Source: Candidatus Poribacteria bacterium (GTDB lineage Bacteria; Poribacteria; WGA-4E; WGA-3G). From it: a stretch of 64,000 nucleotides of DNA. Made by a program: the position numbers and the translations under genes. A model generated the notes under the pieces. The model searched no databases. It was not told the DNA's origin and saw only the letters and a list, made by a program, of their open reading frames with translations. Numbering within the stretch: position 1 is the first letter of the stretch; every line of letters starts with the position of its first letter. Location: NCBI GenBank assembly GCA_028821605.1, contig JAPPFM010000059.1, forward strand, positions 186,001-250,000, given 5' to 3'. This document shows positions 24,650-33,906 of this stretch, one piece after another.

Positions 24650-24706
24650 AATCCCGAGAAATCGTGATTCGGAGATCGATTCTACACCCACCGTAGCAGA
24701 TCCTTT

Positions 24707-29878: not shown

Positions 29879-30871
29879 CTACTCGTCAAGCCAACTCATC
29901 ATGCTGCGGAGATTCTTGCCGACCTCTTCTATTTCGAGTTCTGCCTCCTGCCGGCGGAGCGCGCCGAGCACAGGTTGATTCGCCTCATTCTCCAAAACCC
30001 ATTCCCGTGCGAAGACACCTTCCTGCACGTCCTTTAAGATTTGGCGCATCTTGTCTCGGACATTGTCGTCAATAATCTGCGGACCACGTGTGAGGTCTCC
30101 GAATTCGGCGGTATTGCTAATATCATTCCGCATTTTGCTCAATCCGCCAGAGTAAATCAAGTCGACAATCAACTTGAGTTCGTGGAGACACTCAAAATAA
30201 GCCATTTCGGGTTGGTAACCAGCTTCAACGAGTGTATCAAAAGCGGCTTTGATGAGTGCAGCGGTCCCACCACACAGGACAGCTTGTTCACCGAAAAGGT
30301 CGGTTTCGGTTTCTTCACGAAATGTGGTCTCAATAACCCCTGAACGTGTGCCACCGATACCTCTGGCATAAGCGAGTGCGACATCGCGAGCGAGACCGGA
30401 CGTATCTTGATGGATAGCGATAAGACACGGTACACCGCCGCCGCCTTCAAATACTTCACGGACCAGAGAACCGGGTCCCTTCGGCGCAATCATCGCGACA
30501 TCAATATCGCCGGCAGGCACAATCTGCCCAAAATGGACGCTGAACCCGTGCGAGACGAGAAGCATATTGCCTGCTTCCATATTTGGAGCAATCTGGTCGC
30601 GGTAAACAGCGGCATGGCGTTCGTCGGGAATGAGTACCTGAACGATGTCCGCCATCGCTGAGGCCTCCTCAACAGTTTTGACGGTTAAACCCTCCGCCTC
30701 TGCACGCTCCTTTGAGCGACTACCTTCATATAACCCGACGACGACGTTTGCACCGCTGTCTTTAAGGTTCAGCGATTGGGCGCGACCTTGCGCACCGTAG
30801 CCGACGACAGCGACGGTACGCTCTTTTAGTAAATCAAAATTAGCATCACTATCGTAATAAATCGTTGCCAT
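29879..30871 (-). CDS. ilvC: Ketol-acid reductoisomerase
   Basis: 330 residues, the length of class I enzymes. It converts acetolactate or acetohydroxybutyrate to the dihydroxy acid using NAD(P)H and Mg. The GYGAQGRAQ dinucleotide motif is near residue 25; metal ligands lie in [14 protein letters not shown] and [17 protein letters not shown]. Third gene of the ilvB-ilvN-ilvC set under the T-box at 33473-33870. The leader carries the start-adjacent motif ACCGCAAGGAAAATTAAAA shared with five other genes. A possible further control is a 180-nt gap from ilvN. Confidence 0.97.
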
Positions 30872-31055: not shown

Positions 31056-31556
31056 TTACTTTTCGGTACCGCGTAACATCGCTATTTTACCGGTGCGTGC
31101 TAATTCAAGGATACCGTACGTATTGAAAATATCAATCGCCGCTTTCAACTTACCCTCATCACCTGTGATTTCAAGGACAAGTGAGGCGGGTTTCATATCT
31201 ATAACCCGTCCACGAAAAACTTCCGCGACTTGTAGAACCTCGGTACGTTTTTGAGGATCATCGGTAGCGATCTTGATAAGAACAAGTTCTCGCTCAACAT
31301 GCGTTCCAGCGGTGGAGAGGTCGGTCACCTCAATAACATCAATGAGTCTGTTTAAATGGTGGTAAATCTGTTCAATGATCTGTGCGTCACCGTGTGTGAC
31401 AAGGGTTATCTGCGAAATGCTTTTGTCATGCGTTTCGGCGACGTTGAGACTGTCAATATTAAAGCCGCGCCCGCTGAAGAGTCCAGCCACACGGGCAAGG
31501 ACTCCAAATCGGTTTTCGACCAAAACGGAAAAGATGTGTCGTTTTTCAGAATTCAT
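31056..31556 (-). CDS. ilvN: Acetolactate synthase small (regulatory) subunit
   Basis: 166 residues with the ACT domain start FSVLVENRFGVLARVAGLFS and the C-terminal domain ending ELARTGKIAMLRG. It binds branched-chain amino acids and gives feedback control to the IlvB subunit. Weak ribosome site (AAAAGA) before the ATG. It sits between ilvB and ilvC with gaps of 190 and 180 nt. Confidence 0.96.
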   Translation of the reverse strand: MNSEKRHIFSVLVENRFGVLARVAGLFSGRGFNIDSLNVAETHDKSISQITLVTHGDAQIIEQIYHHLNRLIDVIEVTDLSTAGTHVERELVLIKIATDDPQKRTEVLQVAEVFRGRVIDMKPASLVLEITGDEGKLKAAIDIFNTYGILELARTGKIAMLRGTEK

Positions 31557-31749: not shown

Positions 31750-33426
31750 TTAGGATAGCCCGCGGATAACATCTCCAAGTCCAGCACCCGCTGGCACCAT
31801 TGGGAACACGTTCTCCTCTTCATCAACGATAAAATCAATAACCACAGGACCATCGGTGATCCCTTTCGCCTTCTGTAATGCGGGTTCGACCTCGTCTGGG
31901 TGTTCAACCCGCAGCCCTGTGGCACCGAATGCCTGTGCAAGCAATGCGAAATCAGGATTATCGTGGTAATCGACAGCAGAGTAGCGTTTGCCATGGAACA
32001 ATTCCTGCCATTGGCGCACCATCCCCAGGTACATATTGTTGATGATGAAAACCTTAATCGGCAGTTTCATCGTAATCGCTGGCACCAACTCTTGGATCGT
32101 CATGATATAGGAACCGTCCCCGTTGATGTTAACAACGGTTTTGTCCGGACATCCGAGCTGCGCACCGATTGCGGCGGGGAGGCTAAAGCCCATCGTACCG
32201 AGACCACCGGAGTTGAGCCACTGCCGCGGTTCGGTGAATTTGAAGTATTGCGCCGCCCACATCTGGTGCTGCCCGACATCCGCGACAACAATGGCATCGC
32301 TGTAATGCTCATAAATCTGCTCAATGACATATTGTGGCATTACCTTATCGGCTTTCTGCTCATATTCAAACGGGTACTTCTGCTTCCATTCCTGAATTTG
32401 GTCGCGCCATGGGTCAATGTCTGCTGTCCCAACCTGTTTATTCAGTTCTGTCAGAACGCTCTTCGCATCACCTACGATCGGAACATCCACCGGTACATTT
32501 TTTCCGATACAGGAGGCATCAATATCAATGTGAATTTTCTTCGCGTTTGGTGCGAATTTACTGAGATCACCTGTAACGCGGTCATCGAACCTTGCGCCAA
32601 TAGCGATAACAAGATCAGAGTCGGTAAAAGCGTAATTAGCGCAACAAGAACCGTGCATTCCGGGCATTTCCATCGCCAAAGGATGCGTTTCGGGAAATGC
32701 ACCGAGTCCCATTAATGTAACAGTAATCGGAATCTGGGTTTTGAGAGTGAGCTGCCGCAGCTCCTCACTGGCATTGGCGAGTACAACACCACCACCGGCA
32801 TAAAGCATGGGGCATTTCGCTTCTTTAATCAGTGCCGCCGCCTTTGCAATTTGTGCTGGATCACCATGAACTTGCGGCTTGTAGCTACGGATATCAACTG
32901 TTTCTGGATATTGAAACAGTGTTTCGTGTATCTGCGCATCTTTGGCAATGTCAATGACGACAGGACCGGGTTTCCCCGTCTTCGCGAGATGAAATGCCTC
33001 AGCGACGACATCTGCTATCTCATCGCTACTTTTGATGAGGTAACTATGCTTACAGATCGGACGTGTTACACCGATAACATCACACTCTTGGAAGGCATCA
33101 CTACCGATATAATGGGTAAAAACCTGTCCAGTAATCGCAACCATCGGAATCGAATCCATATAAGCGGTTGCAATGCCGGTGACAAGATTCGTTGCGCCGG
33201 GACCGGAAGTTGCGAGCGCGACCCCGACATCCCCAGTCGCGCGTGCATAGCCATCAGCGGCGTGGGAAGCTCCTTGTTCATGCCGCATCGGTATCAATTT
33301 AACTTCGGTCTCACTGTAGAGGGCATCGAAAATCGGCATCGCCGCGCCACCGTTTACACCGAAGATATATTCGACACCTTCCCGCTTGAGACTGTCAACA
33401 AGGATTTGCGCTCCTGAAAGTTCCAT
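31750..33426 (-). CDS. ilvB: Acetolactate synthase large (catalytic) subunit
   Basis: 558 residues from ATG 33426; GAGGA lies 9 nt upstream, while the in-frame ATG at 33441 has none. The ThDP-activating Glu is in MRHEQGASHAADGYARATG; the ThDP/Mg motif is NINGDGSYIMTIQELVPA. It forms acetolactate and acetohydroxybutyrate at the entry to valine, leucine and isoleucine synthesis, with IlvN as partner. First gene of the T-box-controlled operon; distinct from the AlsS-like protein at 7804-9441. Confidence 0.96.
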   Translation of the reverse strand: MELSGAQILVDSLKREGVEYIFGVNGGAAMPIFDALYSETEVKLIPMRHEQGASHAADGYARATGDVGVALATSGPGATNLVTGIATAYMDSIPMVAITGQVFTHYIGSDAFQECDVIGVTRPICKHSYLIKSSDEIADVVAEAFHLAKTGKPGPVVIDIAKDAQIHETLFQYPETVDIRSYKPQVHGDPAQIAKAAALIKEAKCPMLYAGGGVVLANASEELRQLTLKTQIPITVTLMGLGAFPETHPLAMEMPGMHGSCCANYAFTDSDLVIAIGARFDDRVTGDLSKFAPNAKKIHIDIDASCIGKNVPVDVPIVGDAKSVLTELNKQVGTADIDPWRDQIQEWKQKYPFEYEQKADKVMPQYVIEQIYEHYSDAIVVADVGQHQMWAAQYFKFTEPRQWLNSGGLGTMGFSLPAAIGAQLGCPDKTVVNINGDGSYIMTIQELVPAITMKLPIKVFIINNMYLGMVRQWQELFHGKRYSAVDYHDNPDFALLAQAFGATGLRVEHPDEVEPALQKAKGITDGPVVIDFIVDEEENVFPMVPAGAGLGDVIRGLS

Positions 33427-33472
33427 GCCAATTTTCCTCATAAATTGTAGGGATCGTCCCTACGGGAGTCGT

Positions 33473-33870
33473 TAAAATTAAAAAACCTTCTCGTTCCAAA
33501 CATGGAGACGAGAAGGACATTTACACTGACCTTACCGTGGTACCACTCCAATTCCCTTTCTCATTTTTACGTAAAGTCTCACCTAACACGAGAAAGAGCA
33601 CTCTTTGGGATGCGATAACGGGCATCATACCGACTAATCCTACTTATCGCGATTCGGAGATCACTCCTACAATTGTTCAGATTAGCAGCTCCAGGGCGAC
33701 CTTCAGTCGTGGAAACTTGAGGAGACCTTTCAGCCGATGAGTCTCCATCTCTCGCAAGCCCAGACGACTTACTCCTCCCCTTCAACGCCTTTTCGGGTAA
33801 TCTATTTAGATGTTAATTACGCACGCCGTTTTACGAAAGTTTCACGGTCATGCTGAAAGGATTATATTTA
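33473..33870 (-). promoter_or_regulatory. T-box riboswitch leader of ilvBNC
   Basis: On the minus strand the leader has the T-box core GGAGTGGTACCACGGT (plus-strand 33533-33548), preceded by a long stem I with GGAGGAGTAAGT, GAGAGATGGAGAC and CTGAAAGGTCTCC. An intrinsic terminator follows: CCTTCTCGT...ACGAGAAGG (33485-33515) and a T-rich tract (33473-33484). The specifier candidate is GTC (valine) at 33697-33699, before CCTGGAGCTGC; this is less certain. The NNN of TGGT would pair with an A discriminator, as in branched-chain tRNAs. Low charging of the tRNA would favour read-through into ilvB. Confidence 0.88.
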
Positions 33871-33877
33871 CCCTTTA

Positions 33878-33906
33878 AGTATAACACATTTAAAGAGCGA
33901 TGTCAA
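33878..33906 (-). promoter_or_regulatory. Sigma-70 promoter of ilvBNC operon
   Basis: On the minus strand TTGACA (33901-33906), 17-nt spacer and TATACT (33878-33883), placed just upstream of the T-box leader. Confidence 0.75.

What the first reader, a model, noticed from the sequence alone, without database searches (positions are those of the whole stretch)
33473..33906. T-box leader, promoter and terminator controlling ilvBNC, probable valine specifier
A complete chain is visible: promoter TTGACA/TATACT, stem I, T-box core GGAGTGGTACCACGG and a terminator with T-run. T-boxes are rare outside Firmicutes and a few other groups. The specifier candidate is GTC at 33697-33699. The T-box N base is U, fitting tRNAs with an A discriminator.
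Basis: partly seen in the sequence, partly recalled or inferred. Interest (0 to 1): 0.55.

Follow-up and report, generated by a model that had tools for sequence, protein, structure and literature searches.

The report
Valine tRNA-sensing switch on ilvBNC
The stretch is a standard T-box, an RNA switch that probably turns on the genes for making valine when its transfer RNA is uncharged; the surprise is only where it is found, in an uncultured bacterial phylum not listed among T-box carriers in the surveys I could read.

Summary
On the minus strand, window 33794-33501 matches Rfam T-box (RF00230) over its full length at 104.9 bits against a gathering score of 93. It lies between a near-consensus promoter and ilvB-ilvN-ilvC. 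The genome carries a tRNA-Val(GAC) gene with discriminator A, matching the UGGU bulge. Terminator and antiterminator share the segment 33512-33504. The organism belongs to candidate phylum Poribacteria. There, 78 of 84 genomes have a T-box. Of 137 T-boxes read, 70 have GUC and one AUC, and these precede ilvB (67) or ilvD (2), with two cut by contig ends. The other 66 have UUC, with pheS downstream of 65. Stem I covaries. Valine T-boxes near ilv genes also occur in Bacillota, so the kind is known. What is added is the phylum, the near-universal Val/Phe pair within it, one natural Val-to-Ile specifier change, and a dispersed short repeat in the stem II loop. New member of a known kind; modest interest.

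The parts
33878..33906 (-). sigma-70-type promoter: TTGACA (33906-33901), 17-nt spacer, TATACT (33883-33878)
   Evidence: (11 of 12, TG before the second hexamer)
33501..33794 (-). T-box leader, full RF00230 match
   Evidence: 104.9 bits, E 4.2e-22, model 1-219
33688..33788 (-). Stem I with AGAGA bulge (33752-33748) and distal loop GGCTGAAA (33735-33728)
   Evidence: covariation
33698..33700 (-). specifier codon GUC (Val) in the specifier loop GAA-G-GUC-G
33633..33687 (-). stem II region (CTAATC...GATTAG) with the S-turn-like GAAC/AGTAGG (motif name recalled) and, in its apical loop, a dispersed repeat unit GTAGGAGTGATCTCCGAATCGCG (33670-33648)
33616..33632 (-). stem IIA/B pseudoknot element CGGTATGATGCCCGTTA (element name recalled)
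33535..33549 (-). T-box / antiterminator 5' arm GGAGTGGTACCACGG, with the UGGU that would pair with tRNA ACCA
33504..33512 (-). antiterminator 3' arm CTCGTCTCC, shared with the terminator
33480..33516 (-). intrinsic terminator hairpin CCTTCTCGTCTCCATGTTTGGAACGAGAAGG followed by T6
31750..33426 (-). ilvB, acetolactate synthase large subunit (likely start ATG 33426 after GAGG)
31056..31556 (-). ilvN, acetolactate synthase small subunit
29879..30871 (-). ilvC, ketol-acid reductoisomerase

Best explanation
[quoted passage not shown] Transcription starts near 33870 on the minus strand. When valine is plentiful, the leader folds into the terminator (33516-33486) and RNA polymerase stops. When tRNA-Val is uncharged, its anticodon GAC pairs with the specifier GUC in stem I, and its free 3' end ACCA pairs with UGGU of the T-box. 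That stabilises the antiterminator, which uses the 33512-33504 segment that the terminator needs, so the operon is read. Shown by sequence: the parts, their order, the specifier register, the tRNA gene with A73, stem I covariation, and the shared segment. Inferred: the transcription start, tRNA binding, the charging response, and that all three genes are one transcript.
For: RF00230 match over the full model, 104.9 bits. The same register gives UUC before pheS in the same genome. All 137 Rfam T-box matches were read: 70 GUC and 1 AUC, and 66 UUC (with nine rows resolved by eye). tblastn puts ilvB downstream of 67 of the 71 GUC/AUC leaders and pheS downstream of 65 of the 66 UUC leaders; two of the four ilv exceptions precede ilvD. 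Stem I: 97.5% of cells paired against 89.2% shuffled; 16 of 18 pairs change on both sides, 0 of 500 shuffles as high; slid versions 30-60% paired (34 of 71 leaders after removing near-duplicates). tRNA-Val(GAC) present, ending in discriminator A. Terminator form -22.4 against -16.1 kcal/mol with the antiterminator forced; antiterminator alone -11.1. A hairpin plus T-run lies downstream in 67 of 71 ilv leaders; in three more (L118, L124, L148) a long-loop terminator is visible in the printed sequence, and L121 ends at a contig edge.
Against: No experiment or transcript data. No poribacterium in culture is known to me (recalled). The pheS leader of the same genome is below the gathering score (79.7 against 93 bits). 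The same hairpin test found a terminator in only 45 of 66 pheS leaders, so the pheS set is less well supported. tRNA-Val(TAC) and (CAC) genes also exist; by base pairing the leader would sense mainly the GAC isoacceptor.
Confidence: 0.93

Rival explanations
1. It is a T-box, but it responds to leucine or isoleucine tRNA, like the B. subtilis ilv-leu leader (CUC, Leu; the title of that work is in the reference list seen).
For: The ilv enzymes serve all three branched-chain amino acids (general knowledge); one poribacterial genome, G026, has AUC (Ile) at the same position.
Against: The Rfam register gives GUC here, and 70 of 71 ilv-type leaders read GUC. A Leu codon would need another register, for which the pheS control gives no support.
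Confidence: 0.04
2. It is a decayed or non-functional T-box, kept only as sequence.
For: A dispersed repeat sits inside the leader, so it has taken an insertion.
Against: Stem I covaries; the specifier, the T-box core and the terminator are kept across the phylum; the repeat lies in an apical loop.
Confidence: 0.02
3. It is a peptide-leader attenuator or another riboswitch that only resembles a T-box.
For: Attenuators of ilv operons exist in enterobacteria (recalled).
Against: Full-length RF00230 match over threshold and no other Rfam family over threshold in the window.
Confidence: 0.01

Closest known systems
RF00230 T-box, valine-specific leaders near ilv genes in Bacillota (L101 Syntrophomonadaceae, L073 Bacillota)
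   Same: GUC specifier in the same register, stem I, IIA/B element, T-box core with UGGU, upstream of ilvB on the fetched loci.
   Different: Different phylum. In L101 and L073 the T-box lies 2-3 kb before ilvB, not next to it. Those genomes carry 11 and 12 T-boxes; poribacterial genomes carry none to three.
B. subtilis ilv-leu T-box (CUC, Leu; title seen, rest recalled)
   Same: Transcription antitermination of the branched-chain operon by uncharged tRNA.
   Different: Leucine specifier instead of valine.
T-boxes of Geobacter leuA, Deinococcus and Chloroflexi
   Same: T-boxes outside the classical Gram-positives, few per genome.
   Different: Other target genes and amino acids; a different phylum.

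Membership tests
T-box riboswitch (RF00230) | match to the covariance model over the gathering score | tested here: met
   104.9 bits against 93, model 1-219
T-box riboswitch (RF00230) | conserved T-box core with UGGN bulge | tested here: met
   GGAGTGGTACCACGG here; N is U in 136 of 137 phylum matches by the script's pattern (L218 has GTGGTCCCG)
T-box riboswitch (RF00230) | Stem I with AG bulge, distal loop and specifier loop | tested here: met
   covariation
T-box riboswitch (RF00230) | specifier codon matching an existing tRNA with complementary discriminator | tested here: met
   GUC; tRNA-Val(GAC) ending in A73
class I (transcriptional) T-box | intrinsic terminator mutually exclusive with antiterminator | tested here: met
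   shared segment 33512-33504; predicted energies
T-box riboswitch (RF00230) | uncharged tRNA binds and causes readthrough | not testable with these tools
   needs in vitro transcription or probing

The most novel reading that the evidence does not exclude
A pair of T-boxes, valine on ilv and phenylalanine on pheST, was already in the last common ancestor of Poribacteria and has been kept nearly throughout the phylum. G002, the one T-box carrier outside the window's class, has both. This would add a phylum-wide, vertically inherited case to the question of whether T-boxes spread from Firmicutes or are older. In one lineage (G026) the valine specifier became an isoleucine one, a natural specificity switch within a kept leader.
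Probability: 0.7. Interest if true: 0.45.

Novelty: new member of a known kind. Interest (0 to 1): 0.33.

Why it matters
The surveys read here place T-boxes in Firmicutes, Actinobacteria, Chloroflexi, Deinococcus-Thermus and Geobacter-type Proteobacteria, and name two scenarios, horizontal spread from Firmicutes or presence in a common ancestor. A candidate phylum in which nearly every genome has the same two T-boxes is a clean case for that question. It also suggests that uncultured poribacteria sense valine and phenylalanine through tRNA charging. The mechanism itself is textbook.

Tried and rejected
Leucine specifier: rejected by the Rfam register and the pheS control. Simple promoter/terminator scans: not decisive alone. 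A first automatic leader extraction by motif failed for 31 of 138 loci, so coordinates were used instead. The terminator test with a 45-nt window missed long-loop terminators; some of the 21 pheS leaders that it scored as lacking one may be false negatives, and I did not check them one by one. fold_alignment was not run on the expression-platform alignment A2: several rows have loop insertions and its 3' half is poorly aligned. A tree of T-boxes was not tried: Wels et al. found such trees unreliable. Origin by transfer from a named donor was not tested. Literature: T-box + riboswitch + Poribacteria 0 papers, Poribacteria + T-box 0, Poribacteria + riboswitch 1 (a Methylacidiphilum genome paper; listing and start of abstract only). 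TBDB and Rfam member lists could not be inspected, so an earlier listing of poribacterial T-boxes is not excluded.

Full report
What is there. On the minus strand of the window, from promoter to gene: TTGACA (33906-33901), 17 nt, TATACT (33883-33878), a leader, and ilvB with its likely ATG at 33426 after GAGG. cmscan of the whole window against Rfam 15 gives one match over threshold, RF00230 T-box at 33794-33501 minus, 104.9 bits, gathering score 93, E 4.2e-22, model 1-219. Downstream are ilvB, ilvN and ilvC by Pfam; upstream is a superoxide dismutase gene.

Specifier. The alignment to the model reads UGAA-G-GUC-G-CCCUGGAGC, so the codon is GUC, valine, at 33700-33698. A control for the register comes from the genome itself: its second T-box lies in front of pheS, behind infC-rpmI-rplT-like genes (these gene names are my reading of the sequence, not a family search), and reads GAA-U-UUC-A, phenylalanine. 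The genome has 45 tRNA matches. ARAGORN on the loci of the best 30 finds tRNA-Val with anticodons GAC, TAC and CAC, tRNA-Phe(GAA) and tRNA-Ile(GAT). tRNA-Val(GAC) ends in a discriminator A, and so does tRNA-Phe(GAA) by my reading; both fit the U of UGGU.

Switch. The terminator CCTTCTCGTCTCCATGTTTGGAACGAGAAGG (33516-33486) folds at -18.3 kcal/mol and is followed by six T. The T-box GGAGTGGTACCACGG (33549-33535) can pair with CTCGTCTCC (33512-33504), which is inside the terminator. Over 77 nt the terminator form is -22.4 and the forced antiterminator form -16.1 kcal/mol; the leader cut before the terminator's 3' arm folds into the antiterminator at -11.1. This is the standard class I arrangement: terminator by default, antiterminator when a tRNA stabilises it. 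Binding of tRNA was not tested.

Organism and phylum. An ilvB relative at 98% identity lies in a record titled Candidatus Poribacteria bacterium (L033). That contig has the length and the T-box position of G067:C47, a genome of the window's genus. In the phylum search, 78 of 84 genomes have a T-box at E up to 0.001, 54 of 55 of the better genomes, and 60 of 84 over the gathering score. The six without are G001, G003, G005, G006, G009 and G032; completeness 64-91%. T-boxes also occur in G002, which shares only the phylum with the window's genome, and it has both kinds.

Census. All 137 matches were read. Specifier GUC 70, AUC 1, UUC 66 (127 unambiguous GUC or UUC by script plus the AUC row; nine others resolved by eye from the printed rows: L122, L151, L171 and L180 as GUC, and L188, L194, L206, L209 and L218 as UUC). 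L171 lacks one base between GAA and GUC. By tblastn, ilvB lies downstream in 67 of the 71 GUC/AUC loci and pheS in 65 of the 66 UUC loci. Of the four ilv exceptions, L113 and L121 end at the edge of the contig, and L122 and L135 have ilvD instead. The one pheS exception, L170, has a DUF4041 protein downstream. Stem I of 34 of the 71 ilv leaders (near-duplicates removed) shows 16 of 18 pairs with changes on both sides and 97.5% of cells paired, above all 500 shuffles and above versions slid by 1-3 columns. These leaders are related, so the shuffle counts are not probabilities.

Specifier change. G026 has AUC, isoleucine, in an otherwise matching leader before ilvB (L115). Its genus has two genomes here; the other, G025, has GUC. 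Wels et al. cite work by Grundy et al. that a single base change in the specifier switches the amino acid (section read). The switch rests on one genome with 6% contamination, although the surrounding leader resembles its sister's.

Comparison. Of 25 genomes reached through ilvB relatives, 8 have T-boxes: three from Bacillota-type records (10, 12 and 11), an Atribacteria-labelled genome (12), Pelotalea and a Geobacter (one each), a Deltaproteobacteria-labelled genome (7), and the poribacterium (2); a Peptococcaceae genome had none. Among 20 ilvB loci scanned, two Bacillota loci have T-boxes over threshold, and both read GUC. So a valine T-box near ilv genes is a known kind of thing. The surveys that I read in part list Firmicutes, Actinobacteria, Chloroflexi, Deinococcus-Thermus and Geobacter-type Proteobacteria (PMC2494555 section 16 part 1; PMC3766115 passages). 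The TBDB paper (PMC7778990) was read in passages and one section. Searches for Poribacteria with T-box found no paper.

Repeat. The stem II apical loop of this leader holds GTAGGAGTGATCTCCGAATCGCG, a unit found 15 times in the genome with up to two mismatches, against none for the reversed control. A script flagged such units in 13 of 71 ilv leaders, in two of them as a tandem pair (L131, L132) (the flag is a loose pattern, and some loops could not be cut cleanly). It looks like a mobile or REP-like element (name recalled) that has entered a tolerant loop.

Verdict. The finding is right in nearly every detail. It is a typical T-box in a place where T-boxes were not on the lists that I could read.

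Noticed in passing
window 33648-33670 (minus); also 24662-24685: Dispersed short repeat GTAGGAGYGATCTCCGAATCGCG inside the stem II loop of the T-box; 15 copies in the genome at up to 2 mismatches, 0 in the reversed control; other ilv leaders of the phylum carry the same or related units, two of them in tandem. A weaker copy lies at 24662-24685.
   Followed up: partly
window 33447-33465 (minus): A second small palindrome-like unit CCGTAGGGACGATCCCTAC between the terminator and the ilvB start, perhaps of the same repeat family.
   Followed up: no
L115 (G026:C18), specifier AUC: Natural Val-to-Ile specifier change in an otherwise kept ilv leader; the sister genome G025 has GUC.
   Followed up: partly
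L122 (G004), L135 (G002): In two deeper lineages the valine T-box precedes ilvD instead of ilvB.
   Followed up: partly
L170 (G039:C15:56300-57800): A DUF4041 protein stands downstream of a Phe T-box where other genomes have pheS; pheS was not found in the fetched stretch.
   Followed up: no
L118, L124, L125, L148, L164, L169: The terminator of the ilv T-box has a long loop in these leaders, by eye in the printed sequences.
   Followed up: no
G098 (genome of L070, titled Candidatus Atribacteria bacterium): 12 matches to RF00230 at E up to 0.001, none over the gathering score, possibly a divergent T-box set in another phylum.
   Followed up: no
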